Source: a virus. Taken from it: a stretch of 27,140 nucleotides of DNA. Of this stretch, positions 1 through 27,140 are shown in pieces. Every line of letters begins with the position of its first letter. Position 1 is the stretch's first letter. The stretch covers positions 1 to 27,140 of IMG/VR virus record IMGVR_UViG_3300028735_000030; one strand, given 5' to 3'. Made by a program: the position numbers and the translations under genes. The notes beneath the pieces were generated by a model, which was not told the DNA's origin, ran no database searches, and saw nothing but the letters and a program-made list of their open reading frames with translations.

Positions 1-127
1 ATTTTATTGTAAATCAGTGAATTACATTTTTATTAAGATTTTTTAACATTATTTTTCTTGACACGTATTGAATTGCACTATATCTTTGTAGTATAAATTT
101 TAAAGAAAGGAAAAATGGAAAATTTAA
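1..127 (+). repeat. Direct repeat, promoter module copy A
   Basis: Bases 1-127 are identical to 858-984, base for base. The repeat carries a near-palindrome (9-27), the whole promoter, the leader and the first 13 bases of the downstream gene, so both genes begin with the residues MENL. It may extend left of the window. The two genes that follow are otherwise unrelated, so the repeat looks like a shared promoter-start module joined to different coding sequences. Confidence 0.95.
43..88 (+). promoter_or_regulatory. Three-part promoter P1
   Basis: TTAACA (43-48), nine bases, TTG (58-60), twenty bases, then TATCTTTG (81-88), which matches the Bacteroidota -7 consensus TAnnTTTG. A near-palindrome TGTAAATCAGTGAATTACA (9-27) lies just upstream and could be an operator. 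It should drive 115-474 and 479-793 with a leader of about 25 nt; the leader has a purine-rich stretch before the ATG. Confidence 0.8.
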
Positions 128-474
128 ATGAAATTTTAGAAGAACTTCAAGAAAATATCAAGCTCTATGAATGGGAAACATGGGAAGACATTCAGGAGAT
201 ATTGGTTGGAGCGTATAAAGATTATTATATTATCTATAATAATATGTTTGAGATAACTTGTCTTGCAGATATAATTATGTATAGGCATTATCTTGCATCA
301 AAAAAAAATAAGAAATTTCTATTAATTAAAAAAAGAACATTTAAAAAATTAGAAAGATATATAAAAGTTTTGAACAAACAAAAAAAAGCAGAAGAATGTA
401 TTTATATTTTCAAAACTTTAAATAAGCTATATCCTGGTTTTGATTTTTATTATTTAAAAAAATATAATATTTGA
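115..474 (+). CDS. Uncharacterised accessory protein, 119 aa
   Basis: I do not recognise this protein. It is lysine-, tyrosine- and isoleucine-rich, with an acidic helical N-terminus followed by a basic region around residues 60-90, and it has no evident signal peptide, metal-binding motif or catalytic motif. The start is fixed by promoter P1 about 27 nt upstream and by its match to the start of 972-1640, which shares the first four residues. It ends four bases before the TPHDV-family gene at 479, so the two are probably co-transcribed. Its position in a separately promoted cassette at the edge of the virion and recombination genes suggests an accessory (moron-like or early host-takeover) role, but this is inference from context only. 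Confidence 0.7.
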   Translation: MENLNEILEELQENIKLYEWETWEDIQEILVGAYKDYYIIYNNMFEITCLADIIMYRHYLASKKNKKFLLIKKRTFKKLERYIKVLNKQKKAEECIYIFKTLNKLYPGFDFYYLKKYNI

Positions 475-478
475 TTTT

Positions 479-793
479 ATGGTAACCCCCCACGATGTTA
501 ATATCGTTGATAAAGATGGGAATGTTATCTTGATTGTGCCTGCCTCCGATAAGCCTTTGCGGCTTATCGAAAAGCGGGATGTTATTGGAGACATCAATGG
601 GATACCATTGTCCAGTGTGTCTTATACAATAGACGAAGCAACGCCGTTACCCAATCCAGACACTGATACGTTTTACATTGTCAGCCGTGTAGTGGCTGAG
701 ACGTTTAAACGACGTGACTTTATCGTACCCGACCAAACGGTGCGTAATGATAAAGGGCAGATAGTAGGGTGCAAGGGATTTGCGTTTGTGTAA
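479..793 (+). CDS. TPHDV-family small conserved protein
   Basis: A 104-aa protein resembling a widespread small family of unknown function seen in bacteria and phages. Hallmarks are TPHDV (residues 3-7), the DKDGNV turn (11-16), a PAS/PPS-like segment (21-23), PLPNPDTDTFYIVSRVV (about 56-72), and a C-terminal RNDKGQIVGCKG (89-100). The base composition is clearly richer in G and C than the flanking AT-rich genes, which suggests transfer. The start is ATG at 479, but the second copy at 26996 has six extra residues before TPHDV (MEITFVNL versus MV), so this copy may be shortened at the 5' end. It follows 115-474 by four bases and is closed by a terminator. I know of no established function for the family. 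Confidence 0.85.
   Translation: MVTPHDVNIVDKDGNVILIVPASDKPLRLIEKRDVIGDINGIPLSSVSYTIDEATPLPNPDTDTFYIVSRVVAETFKRRDFIVPDQTVRNDKGQIVGCKGFAFV
485..605 (+). repeat. TPHDV gene repeat, copy 1
   Basis: Bases 485-605 are identical to 27020-27140, the last 121 bases of the window, so the repeat probably continues past the window end. Upstream sequence differs except for a shared GATTTTATGG just before the junction. Inside is a perfect 9-bp hairpin: CGATAAGCC (547-555), loop TTTGC, GGCTTATCG (561-569). Confidence 0.95.
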
Positions 794-5257: not shown

Positions 5258-6193
5258 TTATTTACTAAATAAAATAGGTGCTTTTTTTTGAATAATTAAA
5301 TCCGCTATATCCTCACCATCATTGCCTTGAATATCCATAACCAATAAGTTACGTGAAGGTATTCTATTAATTATTGATTTCCAATCGTTTATAAATTTAT
5401 TTTGCTTATCACAATCAGGGATAAGGGTTATTGAGTAATTGGGATTCATGTTGATTAAATTGTAGAGTATATCATAATCAATGCTACTGCCGCCTGTTGC
5501 TAAAAAAACTGCATTGGTATCCTCAGGAAGTCCATAGTAAGCAGTACAGACTAAGGCAGTCTTGGGTGATTCTACGATATAGATATGGTTTAAGTTATTG
5601 TATTGCCTTAATAGATGCCAACCAAACATTACTTTACGTTTTTTGGGTGCATTTTCGTAGTCATTTAAGTATTTTTCAAATGTTAAATCATTGGTTATTA
5701 AATGTTTGAGTAGTTTAGTAATGCTATGCGGGGGGATAGTTTTGGAACGGTTTACTCCGTTGTACTTAACCACTTGCCCATAGTATATTAATGGTCTATC
5801 TCCTCTTTTTTCAAAGAAAAAAAAGACGGGGGAGCGGTAGTAGGGTTCAATGAAGGGGTTGGTAGAGTGCTTAATAGTATAAACTCGGTACAGTTCAAAT
5901 GTTTTGAATAAGGATTTGGTATCGAATAGGTTGAGGTTATTTAATGAGTATAGTAATTCGTTGTTGTATAAGTTGTTATCAACGATTTTGGATAGGTATT
6001 TCACCGGGAGGCAATGGGTATCAAACTCAATAGATTGCGGGGGATATTTTTTGTACCCGCATTTATTGTATCTATCGCACTTGCCGTATTCATCAGCGAG
6101 ATAGTTGCCGTGTCCATCGATTAATTTGACAAAAGTTTTTCTATGACAGGCAGGACAGGGGTGTTTTTTGTTCTTGTCGAAGCTCCATTTCAT
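5258..6193 (-). CDS. DNA primase-like protein, zinc ribbon plus Toprim
   Basis: A 311-aa protein with an N-terminal four-cysteine zinc site (C13, C16, C39, C45), as in primase zinc ribbons and the DUF6371-type proteins of Bacteroidota and their phages, then a linker domain and a C-terminal Toprim-like module. In the latter, YIVESPKTAL (205-214) carries the glutamate E208, and ITLIPDCDK (255-263) carries the D260/D262 pair that would bind metal. The pattern means a primase that makes RNA primers on DNA unwound by the helicase encoded just upstream. Its ATG overlaps the helicase stop by four bases (ATGA), a sign of coupled translation and likely of a working pair. It is shorter than DnaG because it lacks a fused helicase-binding domain. 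Confidence 0.82.
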   Translation of the reverse strand: MKWSFDKNKKHPCPACHRKTFVKLIDGHGNYLADEYGKCDRYNKCGYKKYPPQSIEFDTHCLPVKYLSKIVDNNLYNNELLYSLNNLNLFDTKSLFKTFELYRVYTIKHSTNPFIEPYYRSPVFFFFEKRGDRPLIYYGQVVKYNGVNRSKTIPPHSITKLLKHLITNDLTFEKYLNDYENAPKKRKVMFGWHLLRQYNNLNHIYIVESPKTALVCTAYYGLPEDTNAVFLATGGSSIDYDILYNLINMNPNYSITLIPDCDKQNKFINDWKSIINRIPSRNLLVMDIQGNDGEDIADLIIQKKAPILFSK

Positions 6194-7671
6194 TGCTTGC
6201 GTTTCAAACGAATAAACGTATGTTTATCGTGCCCATATTTATATACTTCAAATCCGTAGTCATGTTGCAATTTTCTCGAAAAAATTTTGTTGCTATCCGC
6301 TCTCAGGTGTCTTTCCTTGCAGAAGTCGGAATAAGCCTTGTAAAATTCGTTGAACCTAATAGGCTCGTTTAAGTCAAACATTTTAAAACCCACTTCTTCA
6401 ATGAAAACGCCAATAGAACTCATACCTTTGATTTCTTCGATAATTTTTTCTGTTGATTTTGATGTAATTACGCCTTCATTGATTAATGGTGTGATGCCTT
6501 GAATTATCCAATTAAATAATGCAGGTAGGTCGTGCTGAATAATCTTATCAAGTAAACCAACGTCAAGTTTCTCAGGGGATTTTGCGAATTCTACGATTGC
6601 TAAACGCCTTGCAATTGCTCCTTCTGCATCGATATTAGGATAGTTATTGCTAATAATCATTTGACGGGGATATTCTGATATCTCCTCAGGCATTGAGTAG
6701 AGTTTGCGGAATTGTCTCTTTTCTTTGGAAACAATGGTTTTAAATAACTCAAAATCAACAGCTTTCAAAGAAGTTTCGTTGGAAATGTTAAGCAGTTTTT
6801 CTTTCATTGAAAAAATCATATTATGGTCATGGGAGATGTTTTCAAGAGATACCGAGCTGACTAATTCAGATGTGAATAACGCTCTGATGGCTTCCGCAAA
6901 AGTGGATTTACCCGTTCCTCCTTTACCGAATATGTACAGACACTTTTCAGTTTTCATGGTAGGTAATAAGCAGGAGGCAAGGAATGTTTGAATGGAAAGC
7001 AAGTCGGTGGGGTGGAGGTTGTCAAAGATTTTATTAAGGTATTTGAACTCGGTTGCGTTACTATCATAGTTTACGGGGAGTTTATACTTGAAGAAATATC
7101 TACGTTCATGAGGAGCATCGAATATTCTTATACCATCGTAGGATATGGCTAATATTTTGTCTTTGGTATTTATATAGGTATAACCTTTTGGGAATTCCTT
7201 CAAATATCCTGATATGTTAAATTCTGCAAGTTTAGATGATAGCGAAGTGTCGCTCTTGTTAACGTCTCCATAATAATGCAATAGCTCGTATATTACATAC
7301 ATTAGCTTTTCATTAGGGATTTTATGATAGTAACCGTTATGATAGGCATAATAATAGTTACCTTCCTTGTGCATATCGCTATCATACCAATATAACCAAT
7401 ACTGTATTGCCCTGAGTAGGTAATAGTAACGAGATGTTGCATCAAGGGGGATTTTAATAATGGATACTTTTTGTTTGGGAATTTTAAAATGAACGTGAGC
7501 CATCAAGCTATTAATCTTATTGAAGGCTTCGTGCATGGTATCATCAGGGTATATGTTACAGCATTCGTTGGTGTACCTGACGATGTCCCTTATTGCTAAG
7601 TCAGGGTATTCATCGTGGATAAATTGCTTAACTAAATCTATTTGGTTGTTATTCATTAATGGTAAAATCAA
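6190..7671 (-). CDS. SF3 helicase (D5/P4-type replication helicase)
   Basis: A 493-aa superfamily 3 helicase. Walker A is GKGGTGKS (249-256), Walker B is in KLLNISNE (292-299, E299), sensor 1 is MIISNNYP (338-345), and the arginine-finger segment is GAIARRLAIVEF (351-362). The N-terminal 200 residues resemble the D5-like region found in phage and plasmid helicases, and the C-terminus (about 415-490) looks like a winged-helix tail. It would form a hexamer that opens DNA at the origin. The partner primase gene overlaps its 3' end, and the candidate origin lies just beyond the upstream gene. Codon 1 (7671) overlaps the previous gene by 23 bases; the methionine at codon 6 (7656) is an alternative start. 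Confidence 0.92.
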   Translation of the reverse strand: MILPLMNNNQIDLVKQFIHDEYPDLAIRDIVRYTNECCNIYPDDTMHEAFNKINSLMAHVHFKIPKQKVSIIKIPLDATSRYYYLLRAIQYWLYWYDSDMHKEGNYYYAYHNGYYHKIPNEKLMYVIYELLHYYGDVNKSDTSLSSKLAEFNISGYLKEFPKGYTYINTKDKILAISYDGIRIFDAPHERRYFFKYKLPVNYDSNATEFKYLNKIFDNLHPTDLLSIQTFLASCLLPTMKTEKCLYIFGKGGTGKSTFAEAIRALFTSELVSSVSLENISHDHNMIFSMKEKLLNISNETSLKAVDFELFKTIVSKEKRQFRKLYSMPEEISEYPRQMIISNNYPNIDAEGAIARRLAIVEFAKSPEKLDVGLLDKIIQHDLPALFNWIIQGITPLINEGVITSKSTEKIIEEIKGMSSIGVFIEEVGFKMFDLNEPIRFNEFYKAYSDFCKERHLRADSNKIFSRKLQHDYGFEVYKYGHDKHTFIRLKRKQ

Positions 7672-7942
7672 TTAGCCCTAATTTAATCAAAGAGCCCAAT
7701 GTTTGGCAAGGTAAATTTTTGTAAAATGCAAGTTTATCAAACATTAATATTGAGTTTGGCTTTTCGATAACATATTTTTCAAACATGGGTAGTTTGCCGT
7801 AATTATGATAATAGTTTTTTAAAAAGTTATCAATAATAATAGCAGTAGCATGCCCATCGTATTGAATAGTAACTGTGTCGTTATCAATAGAATAATCTAT
7901 TGGCTTTACTGTTAATGGATTAACTAAATATGCTTTTTTCAT
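7649..7942 (-). CDS. Uncharacterised protein, 97 aa, first gene of replication operon
   Basis: No family recognised. A soluble mixed alpha/beta protein with a short beta-rich N-terminus (residues 5-40, IDNDTVTIQYDG) and a helical C-terminus ending GSLIKLGLIDFTINE. It is the first gene read leftward from the iteron region and overlaps the helicase start. Its position, next to control sequences and ahead of helicase and primase, would suit an origin-binding or regulatory protein, but I see no clear DNA-binding motif. A TAnnTTTG-type element lies 18 bases upstream of its ATG. Confidence 0.72.
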   Translation of the reverse strand: MKKAYLVNPLTVKPIDYSIDNDTVTIQYDGHATAIIIDNFLKNYYHNYGKLPMFEKYVIEKPNSILMFDKLAFYKNLPCQTLGSLIKLGLIDFTINE

Positions 7943-7959
7943 GAATAATAATATTTTTG

Positions 7960-7993
7960 CAAATATAATAGCAATTTTTTAGCAATAAAACAA
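7960..7993 (-). promoter_or_regulatory. Leftward promoter P8 of the replication operon
   Basis: On the minus strand: TTG (7993-7991), 23-base spacer, TATATTTG (7967-7960), matching TAnnTTTG. It lacks the upstream TTAACA box of the three-part promoters and its spacer is at the long end of the usual range, so activation by a phage factor is possible. Confidence 0.6.
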
Positions 7994-8193
7994 GAATTTT
8001 AAAAATACGCAATTTTACTTATTTAATACGTAAGTAAATATACTTATAACAAAATTTTGAAATATTTTCAATAAAAGTGTCATTTCTTTGAAAATACCTA
8101 TAAAAACGGGGGTAAAAAACAGGCTTAAAAAATAGGTTTGTTTTTATTAATCCTATAAAAAATAGCGATACTTTTTAGAAAATTTAGTTTTTA

Positions 8194-8209
8194 TTAACCA
8201 TTTGGTTAA
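8194..8209. promoter_or_regulatory. Palindrome, possible operator
   Basis: TTAACCATTTGGTTAA has perfect 7-base arms around TT, in the leader-side DNA upstream of the replication operon. It is a plausible site for a dimeric regulator. Confidence 0.4.
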
Positions 8210-8275
8210 ATGCAAAAAGTGTGCCAAGAATTTAAAAATAAATTAAAAAATGTTAAGGTAAATTGTGTAATTAGG

Positions 8276-8294
8276 TGTAAATCAATAATTTACA
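8276..8294. promoter_or_regulatory. Palindrome of the GTAAATC family
   Basis: TGTAAATCAATAATTTACA has 7-base arms. Related sequence occurs upstream of P1 and P2 (TGTAAATCAGTGAATTACA) and in the iteron blocks (TGTAAATCAAA), so one regulator may bind all of them. Confidence 0.45.
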
Positions 8295-8323
8295 AAAATT
8301 GTTGTTAATGATTGGTTTTATTG

Positions 8324-8490
8324 CTGTTTAAATTGCTGTAAATCAAAGAATTAAGCACTCAGGCGGACTAACATTTTAAACATAGTCCGCAAAATAAAAA
8401 CGAGTTTCCTGCAATTGCTTAAAAATCAAATAAATACGCAAGTAAAACATGCGGACTGTTTTTTTTCTGTTTAAATTGCTGTAAATCAAA
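8324..8490 (+). repeat. 24-bp direct repeat with GTAAATCAAA core
   Basis: Bases 8324-8347 are identical to 8467-8490, each beginning CTGTTTAAATTGCTG and ending GTAAATCAAA. A shorter relative is at 8550-8566. The second copy is closed by TTAAACAG (8494-8501), which is the inverse of its own CTGTTTAA start, so the block can also fold on itself. Each copy lies shortly before a GCGGACTA element. Confidence 0.85.
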
Positions 8491-8907
8491 TAGTTAAACA
8501 GTTTTGCGGACTAAGATGCGGACTAAGATTTTTTGAAATTTTTGGCTCTAATTGTTTGTAAATCAAAGATTTAAACAGTTTTGCGGACTATGCGGACTAA
8601 GATTTTCGTAAACTTTCTTTTTTTTCTCTTTTTTCTGTTTTTTTACTGATTATTATTTTTTTAACGTTTTTGCTTTTTTATTATTATTCAACTAATTATT
8701 ATTTTTTTTTCACTATTAATTTTTTCCCCTAAGATATAAAAATATTAGTCCGCATAGTCCGCATTAACATTTAAAACCTTGAAAATCAAACAGTTACACG
8801 GATTTTTTTAACAATTCGATTAGTCCGCATCTTAGTCCGCAAAACTGTTTAACTATTTGATTTACAAAGATTTAAAAACAATTCGATTAGTCCGCATCTT
8901 AGTCCGC
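8363..8907. repeat. Mirror-symmetric array of 13 GCGGACTA elements
   Basis: Forward copies start at 8363, 8451 (last base differs), 8506, 8518, 8583 and 8592; reverse copies (TAGTCCGC) start at 8383, 8746, 8755, 8821, 8833, 8888 and 8900. Most come in close pairs whose start-to-start spacings mirror each other: 12 and 9 on the left, 9, 12 and 12 on the right. The space between the arms (about 8608-8745) is almost pure T/A with pyrimidines on the plus strand. The outermost right pair abuts promoter P7, so binding there could also repress the virion operon. Confidence 0.9.
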
Positions 8908-8911
8908 AAAA
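8810..8911. repeat. 35-bp direct repeat within the iteron array
   Basis: Bases 8810-8844 recur exactly at 8877-8911 (period 67). Each unit contains AATTCGAT followed by two TAGTCCGC elements 12 bases apart. The unit also occurs inverted, less exactly, at about 8499-8526. Confidence 0.9.
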
Positions 8912-8935
8912 AAGAAACCTATAAACTTACTGAAT

Positions 8936-8966
8936 TTTGTTTTTTGATTTATGTTTATTACATTTG
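8936..8966 (+). promoter_or_regulatory. Rightward promoter P7 of the virion operon
   Basis: TTTG (8936-8939), 19 bases, TACATTTG (8959-8966) is an excellent match to the Bacteroidota consensus. The ATG at 8971 follows the -7 element by only four bases, so the transcript probably begins at or next to the start codon. The last iteron pair ends 29 bases upstream. Confidence 0.75.
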
Positions 8967-8970
8967 CGGC

Positions 8971-9378
8971 ATGCGTAAAACCATTTTTGATTACCTTGAT
9001 AAGATGCCTGATGAGTGCGACGGGGGGACTAAGTGTCTGACGCTTGGTTGCCAAAACGCACCGTTTAGGAAATTCTGTAAAGTAAAGTTCAGTAAGACTA
9101 TGTTTGAGCTTCTTGACACCATCAGGAAATCCGCAAGGTACATCAAGGATTTGAACAGGGTTAGTGTGGTTAGACATTGCAGGGCAACGGACTATAACTT
9201 TGATAAAAAAATAGGCAAGCTCAACGAAAAAGAATTGAAAATACTCAAAGAAATCTTGCAGCTCGATGAGAACATTCACTTTCACTATGACAAAAACCAA
9301 GACGAGTACCTTGCCGCAAGTCAAGACATCGCAAAGCTTTTTGAAATTAGTAAAATTGACGATATAACATTTGAATAA
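8971..9378 (+). CDS. Uncharacterised protein, 135 aa, possibly leaderless
   Basis: No family recognised. The N-terminal third has four cysteines (CDGGTKCLTLGCQ about residues 16-28, plus C36) in a layout that could bind a metal. The middle is a basic helical region with a KSARYIKDL-type helix (about 53-61) and VVRHCRATDYNFDKKIGKL (about 66-84), and the tail is an acidic helix. I chose ATG 8971 because promoter P7 lies directly before it; a longer reading from 8857 would run through iterons. ATG 9004 is a later option. As the first gene of the virion operon it could be a regulator or a small terminase, since no small terminase is otherwise obvious, but the sequence does not prove either. Confidence 0.75.
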   Translation: MRKTIFDYLDKMPDECDGGTKCLTLGCQNAPFRKFCKVKFSKTMFELLDTIRKSARYIKDLNRVSVVRHCRATDYNFDKKIGKLNEKELKILKEILQLDENIHFHYDKNQDEYLAASQDIAKLFEISKIDDITFE

Positions 9379-9379
9379 T

Positions 9380-9694
9380 ATGATAGATAAGATTGATTTT
9401 AGTAAAGGTTCATTCATGGAATTAGCAAAACAAATCGCAACCCACTACGTTGCCGAAAAGAAAGATAACGACTATTACTTTAAGCTACGTAGCGGAGAAG
9501 GCAAACCCATCAGCCGTACTGAGTTTGAAAAGTTGGTATCGGATAAACTATCTAACTACCGCAATTTCACTGAAAAAGACCCTGAAACCAAAGCAATACG
9601 CATTGCAAGTATTGTTAGGTTCATTATAGATATGGTAATCAACCTATTAGGCTTCATTCGTGATACCCGTGACAGCACTCGAAAAGATAAGTAA
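9380..9694 (+). CDS. Uncharacterised protein, 104 aa, before the portal
   Basis: No family recognised. A charged, mostly helical N-terminus is followed by a C-terminal amphipathic or membrane-seeking helix (RIASIVRFIIDMVINLLGFI, about residues 75-94). ATG 9380 comes one base after the stop of the previous gene; TTG 9371 is possible but less likely. Its 3' end overlaps the portal gene by 35 bases in another frame. Location directly before the portal suggests a head-assembly or packaging role, by position only. Confidence 0.7.
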   Translation: MIDKIDFSKGSFMELAKQIATHYVAEKKDNDYYFKLRSGEGKPISRTEFEKLVSDKLSNYRNFTEKDPETKAIRIASIVRFIIDMVINLLGFIRDTRDSTRKDK

Positions 9695-13693: not shown

Positions 13694-14154
13694 TGCGTTT
13701 GAACATTGTTAATATCCATACTGTAATAGCCATATATTTGGACAGGTATCCTTATTATAAGGATGCCTTGACCAAATTTCAACTTTATGACTTAGGTATC
13801 GGAGGCAGTGGGCAAATCTTGCGGACTAAATCCAAACGCAAAGGTAGATATGGTATCTACTCCGAAGTCTATGAACCTTATAAGTTATCCGTAGGAGGCA
13901 AGGTAACCACCTTTAACTTGATACTTACAGGTAAACTATACGATAGTTATCGATTTAAAGTAAATCAAAAAGAAATCATCACCTATGCAAACACTATCAA
14001 AGGCAATGACAACCTACTTACACTATACCCTGATGCTTTTCAACCTGCTAAAATCACACTTAACACAATTATTAAAGGCAATAATGACCGTATTAAAGTC
14101 GGTCTTATTGAGCATAGTATTAAGACTATACTCAGTAAGTTCAAGACTAACTAA
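13693..14154 (+). CDS. Tail or neck protein candidate, 153 aa
   Basis: No named family. The central GRYGIYSEVYEPYKLSVG and FNLILTGKLYDSYRFKV (about 50-90) read like paired beta strands, and the C-terminal 25 residues are a basic helix. It starts with the TAATG overlap after the previous structural gene, so expression is coupled. Position between the tail-tube candidate and the tail-tip proteins suggests a neck, tail-terminator or assembly protein. A following ORF in the +1 frame overlaps its 3' end. Confidence 0.7.
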   Translation: MRLNIVNIHTVIAIYLDRYPYYKDALTKFQLYDLGIGGSGQILRTKSKRKGRYGIYSEVYEPYKLSVGGKVTTFNLILTGKLYDSYRFKVNQKEIITYANTIKGNDNLLTLYPDAFQPAKITLNTIIKGNNDRIKVGLIEHSIKTILSKFKTN

Positions 14155-17010: not shown

Positions 17011-19996
17011 TATTACTCCATTTGTTAGTATTCAAAGTTTAAAGAACAATGCCTATTTTGCGGCTGGCCAAATTGCAAACATATCTTTAATAGTAAGAAT
17101 AATAGTAGGCGGCGAGTGTGAGCTATCTAACTACAATGGCAATAGCTTGTTTTTAGAAGCAGATTTGCCCGTATTTGAAAATATGGATAATGGCAACAAT
17201 ATCCGCATTAACTTAGGCAACGGTATTCCTATTGATAGAACCATAACTAATAAGATAAGTGATTATGTTGTTCAAATCAATACCCCCTATACTATTGCAA
17301 CAAGTGTTAAATGCTATGTATCTAAACAGCTTACCAACGCATTTGAAGGAGAAATATTTAGATTTATTATTGATAATATCTCTGCTAATAGTTATATCAA
17401 TAAGATAAGTAATTACGAGCAAGGATATTATACTTATGGCAATGATACACAAGGATTTACCAACACCCTAAACGCAGCACCATTGTTTAAACAAATTGAT
17501 AAGAACATATTTGAGTTCAACGGAGCATTTATTGCTGATAATATTGCATATGGAAACGACACAGGCACTGATGGTATTTATGTAGGGCAATTTTTTTTTG
17601 GTAACCACTTAGCCAATCGCAATGATATACAGAATGCAACAGGTTTATTTTTTTTACCATTTATTAAACTTATCTTCCACCATATTAACCCCTATTTACT
17701 CAGGGATATTAGCGGCAATGCACGTGCATTATTCAATTACTCCTTTGCTTTCCAACCCAAACTGTTCCAAACCGATGGCGAGTTACGTTCGGATAATTCT
17801 TTTGAATTGGTTCAATTTGGGTACTATGATGAACTCGGCAATGGACAATTACCCCCATTTAAACCTTATGATATAGTTATTAACTTCGGCGCAGGATTAT
17901 TATTCAACACATTACCTCAAACATTACAGTTCAAATACCCATTACAAGCTAACTCTAATAACATCATCTACCTCGTATTCCAACGGATGCCTGTTGATGG
18001 AGTAGATTTTGACTTAGATAAAGACTATCAATACAATTGGGGCGTAACCTTTGCTTTTTTCAATAATTTAACCACCCCCACCTTATCCACCCTACCTAAC
18101 CAATTGGTTCAAATCACTTCCATGACCATAGCCCCCGCAGGTCCCGATTGGTTATACACCTGTAACTTCAACCTAACCCCCCGCTTTACCGACTTATTAC
18201 AATTCAAAGGGCTTGCTTGTTATGTAGTCATTGATACTAACTATAATAATACCACTACCATCAATCAAGGTTTCGCCATCTCTCACAAAATCTTTGAAAA
18301 AGAATACACTGCGCCACCCCCCACCCCCAACCCTATATTTACTTTCTTATCTGAATCGTTTGTACCATATGAAACCTTTGATATAGACAAACGAGCAATC
18401 ACTTCCTACCAAACCGCAAGGGTTGCATTTACAATACAATTAAACTTTACCAACGTTTATATTAACAACATAAAAGCAACAATCAAAGACAATGATTATG
18501 ACGTTATTTTAGAGCAATACCAAGCCAACCTATCAGGACACCAATTCACCACCACAGGTTACCCAATCATTGATTATAAGTTACCCACACAGGGAGACCC
18601 TGATACTAATAATTACACAACGTTTTCTATTGTTACAAATAATGACCAATTAACCATATTAGTTCCTGTGGTACACCGCAGGGAGTATTGGTTACCCTTA
18701 CAACCCAATGATGGAGCATTTTACAACCCCCTCCTACCCAACAATGGTCAATCCTTTGATTTTTTTAATTATTTAGAAATATCTATCAGAATAAAAATTG
18801 AATATACCTACAATAACGCAGCGGGTACATTTATACACGATTCAAATAGCATTAAACTAATTAATGACAATCTAAAATGCGGGCAAGTATTACTCCCCCA
18901 TAACATTGTAGGCATCTTTGACCTTTCCAACAACTCTGTAAGCACCCTGACCGTAGGCGAGATTTATTACCTACGTGTTACATCATTGCCCCATGATACG
19001 TTTGACCATGTAGCATCACTGAAATATGTACATATTGATAGTGATAACATCAACACAATGGGCTATATGTATGGCACCGGTAGTCTTTATACTTCAACAA
19101 ACAAAAAAATATTCACCGAACAAATCGGCGATAACTTCTATTTTATCCCACCCAAACCCGGAGACGTTACAATTTACGTTTTATTTGCCAAAAACTCCCT
19201 GACACCTAATCAAGATAGTACCTTGTCAAGAAAAATTTCCTTCTATGTATATCCCAAGCCTGAGGCACTTCCTGATATTACTAATGTTGATTATACTTGT
19301 TGTGAACCAAGAATTGTTTACATTACCGACAAGACTGCATTATTCTATGATGATGACCATTTAATTACGCTAAAAAAAGACGGAGTAGTTATTGCTAACA
19401 TTGTTGATGATACCTTAGGTAAGTATTATGATTATGATAGTATATTAGGTTATCAAGTATTTACAGTGGATTGGAATTTAGTGTTTACTCAATATGGTTT
19501 AGGAGAGTATGTATTTGAAGCAAACGGTAATCCAATAAGTCCAACTTATTGTCTTACCAATAACTTATCACTAATAAACAAAACGGTTTACATTGAATTT
19601 AAAGCAAACAAAAGTGTATCTACTTTCGATTTTAAAAATTATCCCGTAATTATGGGATTTCGTTTAGATGGTATTTTACAAAAAGAAAGTTATTCTGTTG
19701 AGCGTGAGGAAGTTAGTCTTGCAAGCGGCAAGATATTGCCCGCTAATCAAAAGATATTGACTAATTTTTTAGTACAAATTAAACAAATGTACCGGTATGA
19801 GTTTGAATTGATTAAGTTTGGTTTAGTCTTAAATGAATGGACTATTGAAGTAAATGACACTAATAATGTTTTAAGTGGTATCTACAAGATAATTCCCCCT
19901 GCCTCCATAGACCCAACATGGCATTATAAACGTAATTTCTGTTCATTTTCATTTGAAACGAAATTAATTAATATTCTAAGCAGTCAAAATTGTTAA
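17003..19996 (+). CDS. Large tail-tip or receptor-binding protein, 997 aa
   Basis: A very long beta-rich protein, high in Asn, Thr, Tyr, Asp and Pro and low in Lys until the C-terminus, typical of tail fibres and baseplate wings. Several Ig-like or carbohydrate-module-like segments can be guessed, for example VSTLTVGEIYYLRVTSLP (about 645-662) followed by a strand-rich block to about 760, and two CC/C cysteine sites around TCCEPRIVYITDK (about 767-779) that could pair or bind metal. No enzyme motif seen. The plus-strand composition changes from C-rich to G-rich within this gene (about 19.2-19.7 kb). Recognition of the host surface is the likely job. It lies before the tape measure gene, not after it. 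Confidence 0.72.
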   Translation: MFNITPFVSIQSLKNNAYFAAGQIANISLIVRIIVGGECELSNYNGNSLFLEADLPVFENMDNGNNIRINLGNGIPIDRTITNKISDYVVQINTPYTIATSVKCYVSKQLTNAFEGEIFRFIIDNISANSYINKISNYEQGYYTYGNDTQGFTNTLNAAPLFKQIDKNIFEFNGAFIADNIAYGNDTGTDGIYVGQFFFGNHLANRNDIQNATGLFFLPFIKLIFHHINPYLLRDISGNARALFNYSFAFQPKLFQTDGELRSDNSFELVQFGYYDELGNGQLPPFKPYDIVINFGAGLLFNTLPQTLQFKYPLQANSNNIIYLVFQRMPVDGVDFDLDKDYQYNWGVTFAFFNNLTTPTLSTLPNQLVQITSMTIAPAGPDWLYTCNFNLTPRFTDLLQFKGLACYVVIDTNYNNTTTINQGFAISHKIFEKEYTAPPPTPNPIFTFLSESFVPYETFDIDKRAITSYQTARVAFTIQLNFTNVYINNIKATIKDNDYDVILEQYQANLSGHQFTTTGYPIIDYKLPTQGDPDTNNYTTFSIVTNNDQLTILVPVVHRREYWLPLQPNDGAFYNPLLPNNGQSFDFFNYLEISIRIKIEYTYNNAAGTFIHDSNSIKLINDNLKCGQVLLPHNIVGIFDLSNNSVSTLTVGEIYYLRVTSLPHDTFDHVASLKYVHIDSDNINTMGYMYGTGSLYTSTNKKIFTEQIGDNFYFIPPKPGDVTIYVLFAKNSLTPNQDSTLSRKISFYVYPKPEALPDITNVDYTCCEPRIVYITDKTALFYDDDHLITLKKDGVVIANIVDDTLGKYYDYDSILGYQVFTVDWNLVFTQYGLGEYVFEANGNPISPTYCLTNNLSLINKTVYIEFKANKSVSTFDFKNYPVIMGFRLDGILQKESYSVEREEVSLASGKILPANQKILTNFLVQIKQMYRYEFELIKFGLVLNEWTIEVNDTNNVLSGIYKIIPPASIDPTWHYKRNFCSFSFETKLINILSSQNC

Positions 19997-20000
19997 TATT

Positions 20001-20264
20001 ATGATATACTTACAGATAATCAACGAGTTAGACCTAAATAAAATGCCATTATATGCATTGTTAATAATGGCTATTTATTATCTTTGGAAATCCTATCAAA
20101 ATAGTATTGAACGTGCTATAAACCGAGAAAAAGAGGTTTATGACCGTTTGGAGACCAAGATTGACCAACTGAACCTATGTTTAAATAAGTTTGGAACAAA
20201 AATCAATGAACTTGAAATTAAAATTATTGAACTTGAGAACATTGTAAAGAATGGAAGTAAATAA
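20001..20264 (+). CDS. Membrane-anchored coiled-coil protein, holin-like candidate
   Basis: An 87-aa protein with one likely membrane helix (MPLYALLIMAIYYLWKSY, residues 15-32) and a long charged coiled coil (about 33-85). Single-helix plus coiled-coil proteins of this size include BhlA/XhlA-type holins and other lysis accessories. It starts four bases after the 997-aa gene and overlaps the tape measure start by 14 bases. Holin is my first guess because no other holin is evident, but a tail-assembly partner of the tape measure is an alternative. Confidence 0.65.
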   Translation: MIYLQIINELDLNKMPLYALLIMAIYYLWKSYQNSIERAINREKEVYDRLETKIDQLNLCLNKFGTKINELEIKIIELENIVKNGSK

Positions 20265-26000: not shown

Positions 26001-26020
26001 CTTCATTTTTCTTTCAGTAG

Positions 26021-26049
26021 AACCACAGATGTATTTCTGTGGTTTTTTT
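26021..26049 (+). terminator. Terminator T1 after terL
   Basis: Perfect 9-bp stem AACCACAGA (26021-26029), loop TGTATT, TCTGTGGTT (26036-26044), then T run to 26049. Confidence 0.95.
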
Positions 26050-26092
26050 ATTTTGTTGATTATTAGTTAGTTAGATTTGTTTTTAATATTTT

Positions 26093-26143: not shown

Positions 26144-26199
26144 CATTTTAAAAAGTTTTTATTTTCATTATAACCACAGATGTATTTCTGTGGTTTTTT
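26144..26199 (+). ncRNA. Putative short transcript between P3 and T2
   Basis: Promoter P3 should start transcription near 26142-26145, and terminator T2 would stop it near 26199, giving an RNA of roughly 55 nt that is mostly the terminator hairpin. No ATG lies ahead of the hairpin. It may be a small RNA or simply the scar of a deleted gene; ends are estimates. Confidence 0.35.
26172..26199 (+). terminator. Terminator T2, copy of T1
   Basis: The same 24-base hairpin as T1 (26172-26195) with a T run to 26199. Exact reuse within 151 bases suggests that the intervening segment, which includes a promoter, arose by duplication. Confidence 0.95.
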
Positions 26200-26225
26200 A
26201 TTTGTTTTTATTATTTTAATATTTT

Positions 26226-26271
26226 TTAACATATTTTTTCTTGACACGTATAAAAAAACAATATATCTTTG
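26226..26271 (+). promoter_or_regulatory. Three-part promoter P4
   Basis: TTAACA (26226-26231), N9, TTG (26241-26243), N20, TATCTTTG (26264-26271), followed by the same TAGTATAAATTTTAA leader start as P1. It drives 26298-26669 and the partial gene after it. Confidence 0.8.
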
Positions 26272-26297
26272 TAGTATAAATTTTAATTAAAAGAAAA

Positions 26298-26669
26298 ATG
26301 AAAAATAAAAGTAGTATTTTAAGAAAAGCAAAAAAGTGGTCTAAAAGATTTATGTTATTAAAAAGACTAACTCAATTGGACTCTATTATTGATTCTACAA
26401 GTAAAAAGGCAGTTATATCTAAGGCATTTGTTTTATCTAATCAAAATGGGTTGTTTGATAAGCCTAACTTACCGGGGCATAATTACTATATGCCCTATTT
26501 ACAAAAATTCAAGCCCGTTGCAAAATGTTACTTTAAAGTGTATACATTTCCTTGCATAATAGATTTATTGAATTTTAACAATGCTATAAAAGAGCATTGT
26601 GATATACGATTCGTTCTTGAAAAAGAGTTTGACTATCACGATGCTTGGAAGAGAAATTTTTTAAAATAA
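26298..26669 (+). CDS. Uncharacterised accessory protein, 123 aa
   Basis: No family recognised. A strongly basic N-terminus (MKNKSSILRKAKKWSKRF and following) leads into a loop-rich middle with LPGHNYYMPYL (about 58-68) and a beta-alpha C-terminus (CYFKVYTFPCIIDLLNF, about 77-93). It is the first gene of a cassette built like the one at 115-793: three-part promoter, variable ORF, then a TPHDV-domain gene. Start is supported by P4 about 27 bases upstream. Accessory function presumed from context. Confidence 0.68.
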   Translation: MKNKSSILRKAKKWSKRFMLLKRLTQLDSIIDSTSKKAVISKAFVLSNQNGLFDKPNLPGHNYYMPYLQKFKPVAKCYFKVYTFPCIIDLLNFNNAIKEHCDIRFVLEKEFDYHDAWKRNFLK

Positions 26670-26677
26670 ATATAAAA

Positions 26678-27140
26678 ATGAACGATTTAGTTTTTGAAAA
26701 CATCAAAAAAATCTTGGGGGATACATTATCCCATGAGAAAATCAGAAAAACCTATAATGGGTATGTTGTGGATTGGTTTTACCTATCTTATAAGGAAGGT
26801 AGGACTTTCAAGGGAGGTATGTTTGTAGGCACTGTTTACGATGCTATAACAATGGCTAAGGAATTCAATCAAAAGTATAGCAGTGAAGTTGAAATTGTGC
26901 TTTATAATGATACGTTTGATGAGAATGGTAGAAATACCTACTCGAAAAAAACGAATTATATTATAATTAATAACAACAAAATAACATTCGATTTTATGGA
27001 AATTACATTTGTAAACTTGACCCCCCACGATGTTAATATCGTTGATAAAGATGGGAATGTTATCTTGATTGTGCCTGCCTCCGATAAGCCTTTGCGGCTT
27101 ATCGAAAAGCGGGATGTTATTGGAGACATCAATGGGATAC
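26678..27140 (+). CDS. TPHDV-domain protein with extra N-terminal domain, partial
   Basis: The frame is open from ATG 26678 to the window end. Residues 1-106 form an unrecognised domain (MNDLVFENIKKILGDTLS at the start, GGMFVGTVYDAITMAKEF in the middle). From codon 107 (ATG 26996) it reads MEITFVNLTPHDVNIV and continues identically to the TPHDV protein at 479-793. So either this is a two-domain fusion or two products share one frame, the shorter starting at 26996. The family elsewhere usually begins near this internal methionine, so an internal start is quite possible. The 3' end lies outside the window. Confidence 0.7.
   Translation, partial: MNDLVFENIKKILGDTLSHEKIRKTYNGYVVDWFYLSYKEGRTFKGGMFVGTVYDAITMAKEFNQKYSSEVEIVLYNDTFDENGRNTYSKKTNYIIINNNKITFDFMEITFVNLTPHDVNIVDKDGNVILIVPASDKPLRLIEKRDVIGDINGI
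27020..27140 (+). repeat. TPHDV gene repeat, copy 2, running off the window
   Basis: Identical to 485-605 for all 121 bases available. The upstream junction differs: here AAATTACATTTGTAAACTTG follows GATTTTATGG, where copy 1 has only TA. Confidence 0.95.

What the first reader, a model, noticed from the sequence alone, without database searches (positions are those of the whole stretch)
8363..8907. Mirror-symmetric GCGGACTA iteron array around a T-rich core: candidate phage origin
Thirteen copies of GCGGACTA lie in about 545 bases, mostly forward to the left and reverse to the right of a T-rich pyrimidine core. Pair spacings mirror each other (12 and 9, then 9, 12, 12). The array sits between divergent operons, next to SF3 helicase and primase genes. 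This layout fits a bidirectional origin whose initiator binds paired half-sites, and I do not recognise it from a described phage. The binder is unknown; the 97-aa protein (7649-7942) and the 135-aa protein (8971-9378) are the nearest candidates.
Basis: partly seen in the sequence, partly recalled or inferred. Interest (0 to 1): 0.85.

Follow-up and report, generated by a model that had tools for sequence, protein, structure and literature searches.

The report
Phage replication origin with mirrored iterons
This small virus of (probably) Bacteroidota bacteria carries a mirror-image row of short repeated DNA sites around a T-rich strip, most likely the place where its own DNA-unwinding enzyme docks to start copying the genome; the same layout, with different repeat words, sits beside the related enzyme in some other phages and mobile elements.

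Summary
The array is real: 12 exact GCGGACTA plus one GCGGACTG in 8363-8907 (chance 0.2 in the whole window). Outward from the core the intervals run 9, 65, 12, 55 (left) and 9, 66, 12, 55, 12 (right). It fills the one large gap (1028 bp) of the genome. Two Bacteroidota-type promoters flank it, both pointing outward.

The helicase profile matches SaPI5 Rep (7OLA, E 2e-25), and the alignment runs into the C-terminal region that in SaPI Reps recognises iterons.

Support: diverged homologous helicases in Bacteroidota genomes (L223, L224, L225, L247) and in phage phi105 have neighbouring arrays of other words with inverted sets around an AT-rich middle; L224 is mirror-exact. Most other helicase loci show none.

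New detail: six copies of AATCAANNNNTTA, the E. coli IHF consensus, are interleaved (0.2 expected); four lie exactly 22 bp before an iteron.

Unproven: binding, replication, bidirectionality. GC skew does not support an origin here. No close relative was found, so conservation of this array itself is untested.

The parts
7943..8970 (.). divergent non-coding region holding the proposed origin; largest gap of the genome
8363..8370 (+). iteron L-outer, GCGGACTA
8383..8390 (-). reversed iteron in left arm (pairs with 8363 as a 28-bp inverted repeat)
8451..8458 (+). variant iteron GCGGACTG; mirrors 8888 (55 bp inward interval on both sides)
8506..8525 (+). iteron pair, 12-bp spacing
8583..8599 (+). 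inner left iteron pair, 9-bp spacing
8600..8745 (.). T-rich core (84% AT, 60% T on + strand): proposed melting/loading region
8746..8762 (-). inner right iteron pair, 9-bp spacing
8821..8840 (-). iteron pair, 12-bp spacing
8888..8907 (-). outer right iteron pair, 12-bp spacing
8280..8292 (+). IHF-consensus site AATCAATAATTTA (no iteron attached)
8341..8353 (+). IHF-consensus site, starts 22 bp before iteron 8363
8484..8496 (+). IHF-consensus site, starts 22 bp before iteron 8506
8561..8573 (+). IHF-consensus site, starts 22 bp before iteron 8583
8784..8796 (+). IHF-consensus site between the two inner right pairs, not in the 22-bp register
8850..8862 (-). IHF-consensus site, starts 22 bp before iteron 8840 on the minus strand
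7960..7993 (-). Bacteroidota-type promoter TTG-N23-TATATTTG for the replication operon, outside the array
   Evidence: pattern match
8937..8966 (+). Bacteroidota-type promoter TTG-N19-TACATTTG for the rightward operon, outside the array
   Evidence: pattern match
6190..7671 (-). D5-like SF3 helicase (DUF5906/VapE-like, partial TIGR01613, profile match to SaPI5 Rep 7OLA); proposed initiator, C-terminal residues about 405-493 proposed to bind iterons
5258..6193 (-). putative primase (zinc ribbon plus DUF6371 matches)
7649..7942 (-). 97-aa protein of unknown function, first gene of the leftward operon
8971..9378 (+). 135-aa protein of unknown function, first gene of the rightward operon

Best explanation
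The region is the phage's replication origin, of the self-loading SF3 helicase type. Proposed steps: (1) the helicase (6190-7671) binds the GCGGACTA sites through its C-terminal winged-helix region [inferred from homology to SaPI Rep]; (2) six forward sites on the left (five exact, one variant) and six reverse sites on the right would place one hexamer on each side, facing each other across the core [site counts shown, hexamers inferred]; (3) IHF or a host HU/IHF-family protein bends the DNA at the AATCAANNNNTTA sites and compacts each arm [consensus shown, binding inferred]; (4) the T-rich core melts, the helicases load and move apart, and the neighbouring primase and host polymerase start both forks [inferred]. 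The two outward promoters may share the region, so that origin occupancy also affects early and late transcription [inferred].
For: Array and mirror spacing far beyond chance; sole large gap of the genome, most T-biased core. Helicase: DUF5906, VapE-like and TIGR01613 (below its cut-off) matches; an 18-sequence profile hits SaPI5 Rep 7OLA at 2e-25, the alignment including LYkeYkefCkdegyralskkkfskrlknyG of the C-terminal region. [quoted passage not shown] SCC helicase Cch2 binds a repeat-containing region beside its gene (PMC7581432); [quoted passage not shown] Homologous helicases with nearby arrays of other words: L223 (AGTAACC, divergent gap 5' of helicase, same placement as here), L224 (intervals 9,10,45,86,45,10,9), L225, L247, phi105 (two 9-bp-spaced pairs around a very AT-rich core). 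Sorted arrays at logE below -1: 9 in about 105 kb within 1.5 kb of other helicases versus 6 in about 415 kb further off (the zones were set by me and the hits include weak ones).
Against: No experiment. Most helicase loci examined show no array by my scans, including the closest homologues (L194-L203), so an array is not a general companion of this family. The array lies 5' of the helicase with a gene between, whereas SaPI/PICI origins lie directly 3'. Cumulative GC skew peaks near 9 kb and is lowest near 20 kb, the reverse of the usual origin signal; fourfold-site skew changes sign at 9.4-9.7 kb and near 20 kb and mostly follows coding strand. Structure models were poor and gave no fold match, so the winged helix rests on sequence. 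The array word was not found in any relative, and mirror symmetry could come from one inverted duplication.
Confidence: 0.77

Rival explanations
1. The array is a regulatory region: sites for a phage repressor/activator controlling the two divergent operons, bound by one of the flanking small proteins.
For: Lies between divergent operons with outward promoters; short direct repeats of this octamer next to promoter-like sequence occur in unrelated viral contigs (L007, L019, L024, L028, L031), where operators are plausible.
Against: Neither predicted promoter overlaps an iteron: the left one is about 370 bp away, the right one starts 30 bp past the last site. Arms 160-240 bp long facing each other across a 146-bp T-rich strip are not needed for an operator. 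Small proteins have no DNA-binding family match. Several of the relatives' arrays lie 3' of the helicase, not between divergent promoters.
Confidence: 0.13
2. It is the DNA packaging site (cos/pac) recognised by a small terminase, comparable to lambda cosB with its repeated sites and IHF site.
For: Lies just upstream of the rightward operon that begins with two small genes and portal; in L223 the array lies upstream of a TerS-like ORF and TerL; IHF-consensus sites are present.
Against: Mirror-inverted halves around a melting-prone core are not typical of pac or cosB (my knowledge). In L225, L247 and phi105 the array is beside the helicase, with no terminase seen next to it. TerL of this phage is at 24.8-26.0 kb. 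The contig end rejoins position 485, which suggests a circular or permuted map without a break at the array.
Confidence: 0.05
3. It is a partition (centromere) or incompatibility site of a plasmid-like phage state.
For: Iterons with IHF sites also occur in plasmid partition sites (my knowledge).
Against: No ParA/ParB-like match among the proteins scanned (not every ORF was scanned); a helicase rather than a partition gene is shared by the comparable loci.
Confidence: 0.03

Closest known systems
SaPI / PICI replication origins (SaPI5 Rep, SaPIbov1 Rep, EcCICFT073 pri-rep-ori)
   Same: Primase_Cterm/D5-type SF3 helicase gene next to the origin; [quoted passage not shown]
   Different: Here in a contig with portal, capsid, tape-measure and large-terminase genes; array is 5' of the helicase beyond a 97-aa gene, in a divergent gap, not 3'; paired octamers at 9 and 12 bp; interleaved IHF-consensus sites; strongly T-biased core
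Phage P4 alpha protein and its origin
   Same: Winged-helix domain of an SF3 helicase-primase binds repeats at the origin (as described in PMC4234260)
   Different: P4 alpha is a primase-helicase fusion; here primase and helicase are separate genes and the repeats differ
SCCmec Cch2 putative origin
   Same: SaPI5-Rep-like helicase that binds direct repeats next to its gene (PMC7581432)
   Different: Three iterons downstream of the gene, against thirteen sites in mirrored arms upstream
Bacillus phage phi105, region 3' of its primase-helicase (L085 5115-5285)
   Same: TGTTACTTTTGTTACT / AGTAACAAAAGTAACA pairs with 9-bp spacing inverted around a very AT-rich core
   Different: Fewer sites, other word, 3' location; I did not look for a published origin of phi105

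Membership tests
SaPI/PICI-type iteron origin | adjacent D5/Primase_Cterm SF3 helicase with a C-terminal DNA-binding region | tested here: met
   7OLA E 2e-25, alignment runs into the C-terminal winged-helix region; TIGR01613 matched below its cut-off; fold itself not confirmed
SaPI/PICI-type iteron origin | two iteron sets flanking an AT-rich region | tested here: met
SaPI/PICI-type iteron origin | origin directly 3' of the rep gene | tested here: not met
   array is 5' of the helicase with the 97-aa gene between
SaPI/PICI-type iteron origin | initiator binds the iterons; rep plus ori replicates autonomously | not testable with these tools
   needs gel shift and plasmid assay
PICI (the element as a whole) | satellite that uses a helper phage's virion genes | tested here: not met
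   window encodes portal and TerL plus long tail-like and tape-measure-like ORFs
DnaA-dependent origin | DnaA boxes TTATNCACA in the region | tested here: not met
   none in 7943-8970; four in the whole window, all elsewhere
IHF binding sites | match to WATCAANNNNTTR beyond chance | tested here: met
   6 in the gap against 0.20 expected, max 3 of 2000 shuffles; copies are partly duplicates of one another
IHF binding sites | bound by the host's IHF/HU protein | not testable with these tools
   host unknown

The most novel reading that the evidence does not exclude
A composite origin in which each unit is an IHF-type bend site placed 22 bp from an iteron pair, so that host IHF/HU protein shapes two facing helicase hexamers: an IHF-assisted self-loading SF3 origin in an independent tailed phage, widening an origin type described in 2018 (PMC6092414) as shared by no known bacterial replicon other than PICIs.
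Probability: 0.3. Interest if true: 0.65.

Novelty: new variant of a known kind. Interest (0 to 1): 0.52.

Why it matters
It gives a concrete, testable origin and initiator for a Bacteroidota-type phage lineage in which none was recognised, and suggests that the PICI-type origin is not confined to satellites. Recognising the layout (word-independent, inverted iteron sets around an AT-rich core beside a D5-like helicase) may allow origins to be predicted in some other phage genomes, and the pairing of helicase C-terminal regions with different iteron words offers material for a recognition code.

Tried and rejected
Close relatives by helicase, primase, TerL and capsid proteins in viral contigs, and by helicase in genome contigs: none; L223's helicase in viral contigs: none. 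Array DNA against phages and plasmids: only chance-level matches. Octamer pairs in viral contigs (74 stretches) and genome contigs (78 stretches): contexts inspected were mostly coding or unrelated tandem repeats; the Pedobacter hit L098 lies by a XerC-like gene and looks unrelated. Composite IHF-plus-iteron pattern: 5 single hits, each with one octamer only. IHF consensus in the arrays of L223, L224, L225 and L247: none, so the IHF element is not shared. L245, a helicase homologue next to an integrase-like gene: no array seen. Control loci L086-L163 for the array count: unsuitable because chosen for repeats. Single-sequence AlphaFold models: low confidence and no Foldseek match. Second element as a palindromic operator TGTAAAT-N5-ATTTACA: perfect only at 8276, the right half not kept in other copies.

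Full report
What is there. The window is a whole virus record of 27,140 bases. Twelve exact GCGGACTA and one GCGGACTG lie in 8363-8907; the thirteenth exact copy is at 13821 within a coding ORF. Orientation is forward left and reverse right apart from 8383. Counting outward from the core, left intervals are 9, 65, 12, 55, 88 and right ones 9, 66, 12, 55, 12. Thus the variant at 8451 mirrors 8888; the position that would mirror 8900 (8439) holds GCAAGTAA, which I cannot call a site. Long inverted repeats (81 nt at 85%, 58 nt at 78%) show that the arms share ancestry, so the copies are not independent draws. The core 8600-8745 is 84% AT and the most T-biased 146-bp stretch of the genome, but not the least stable one.

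Second element. Between the pairs lies a repeated AATCAANNNNTTA, equal to the E. coli IHF consensus WATCAANNNNTTR: 6 exact copies in the gap, 0.20 expected, maximum 3 in 2000 shuffles. In four units it begins exactly 22 bp before the first iteron. Variation between copies falls mostly on the N positions. Since the units are partly duplicates the count overstates independence. The arrays of L223, L224, L225 and L247 have no such match, so it is a feature of this phage as far as I can see, and that a Bacteroidota protein binds it is inference.

Surroundings. Leftward operon: 97-aa protein, D5-like SF3 helicase, putative primase (zinc ribbon plus DUF6371), RecT, VRR-NUC nuclease. Rightward: two small genes, portal, capsid-type ORF, tail ORFs, TerL. 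Bacteroidota-type promoters TTG-N-TAnnTTTG are predicted at 7960-7993 (minus) and 8937-8966 (plus), both outside the array and pointing outward. The last 121 bases equal 485-605, so the map probably closes as a circle of 26,535 bp with 1-484 as an alternative path; this is my inference from the repeat.

Initiator. The helicase has DUF5906 and VapE-like matches and a TIGR01613 match below that model's cut-off. A profile of 18 homologues hits SaPI5 Rep (7OLA) at E 2e-25, next ASFV C962R at 3e-14. The identification of 7OLA as SaPI5 Rep is my knowledge; the table calls it DNA primase. The 7OLA alignment continues into the C-terminal segment, which in SaPI Rep recognises the origin iterons (PMC7581432). 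Structure prediction from single sequences was too weak to confirm the fold. The 97-aa and 135-aa proteins match no DNA-binding family at meaningful scores (the 135-aa protein was scanned without its first residue).

Comparison. No near relative was found in the collections I could scan. In 395 Bacteroidota genomes 36 have a homologue, about 23-32% identical. I fetched flanks for 32 places and five more from a later search. Arrays of a different word with inverted sets around an AT-rich middle are seen beside the helicase in L223 (AGTAACC, 5', divergent gap, TerS-like ORF and TerL on the far side), L247 (AGTGCAAA, 3'), L224 (TTATTAACA; + + + - + - - - with intervals 9, 10, 45, 86, 45, 10, 9) and L225 (CATTCTTAA, 3'). 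Top 7-mer counts exceed most or all shuffles in these gaps (4/300, 1/300, 0/300 and 0/300 shuffles reach them for L223, L247, L224, L225). Of six phage-collection loci taken as helicase hits, L081, L083, L084 and L085 (phi105) have over-represented words near the helicase and L080 and L082 do not; of these only phi105 shows a clean inverted pair layout. Most of the other genome loci show nothing. A count of sorted arrays gave 9 near (about 105 kb) against 6 far (about 415 kb) without the window; several of the 9 are weak, and I chose the zone and threshold, so I treat it as suggestive.

Against. GC skew: the cumulative maximum is near 9 kb and the minimum near 20 kb; fourfold-site skew is mostly positive from 1.8 to 9.4 kb, about -0.67 from 9.66 to 20.0 kb, and mostly positive after. 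That is the opposite of the usual polarity if the array is the origin. Because left genes and the 9.7-20 kb genes both have C above G on the coding strand, I read it as mainly coding-strand bias, yet TerL and the tape-measure-like gene do not follow, so it remains an open point. The position 5' of the helicase also departs from the SaPI/PICI pattern.

Judgement. The origin reading is favoured (0.77), with the helicase as probable binder; a regulatory region is the main rival (0.13). [quoted passage not shown] What is new is its occurrence in a tailed phage of this lineage, the paired 9/12-bp sites, the position, and the interleaved IHF-consensus sites. That 2018 statement may be outdated; I did not find a later paper on phages with this layout in the few open-access searches I made, and the 2022 SaPI helicase structure paper was not held.

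Noticed in passing
window 485-605 and 27020-27140: Identical 121-bp stretches: the contig end rejoins internal position 485, suggesting a circular or permuted unit of 26,535 bp, with 1-484 as an alternative path.
   Followed up: partly
window 1-132, 858-989, 26184-26315; 26006-26064 and 26157-26215: Repeated promoter-bearing segments (TTGACA...TAnnTTTG), 98% and 71% alike, and two near-identical terminator-like hairpins AACCACAGATGTATTTCTGTGGTT between TerL and the next gene.
   Followed up: no
window 9378-9660 and 19996-20251: Abrupt sign changes of fourfold-site GC skew at both places; a replication or mosaic-module boundary, unexplained.
   Followed up: partly
window 8276-8294: Perfect palindrome TGTAAATCAATAATTTACA overlapping the outermost IHF-consensus site; could be an operator.
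   Followed up: no
L224 7291-7513: Eight TTATTAACA sites with exactly mirror-symmetric intervals 9,10,45,86,45,10,9 near a primase-helicase gene, one ORF away.
   Followed up: partly
L085 5115-5285 (Bacillus phage phi105): Two 9-bp-spaced inverted pairs around a very AT-rich core directly 3' of the primase-helicase: candidate phi105 origin.
   Followed up: partly
L007, L019, L023, L024, L031, L028: GCGGACTA direct repeats with 11-bp period beside promoter-like sequence in viral contigs (the first five nearly identical); possible operators of an unrelated regulator.
   Followed up: no
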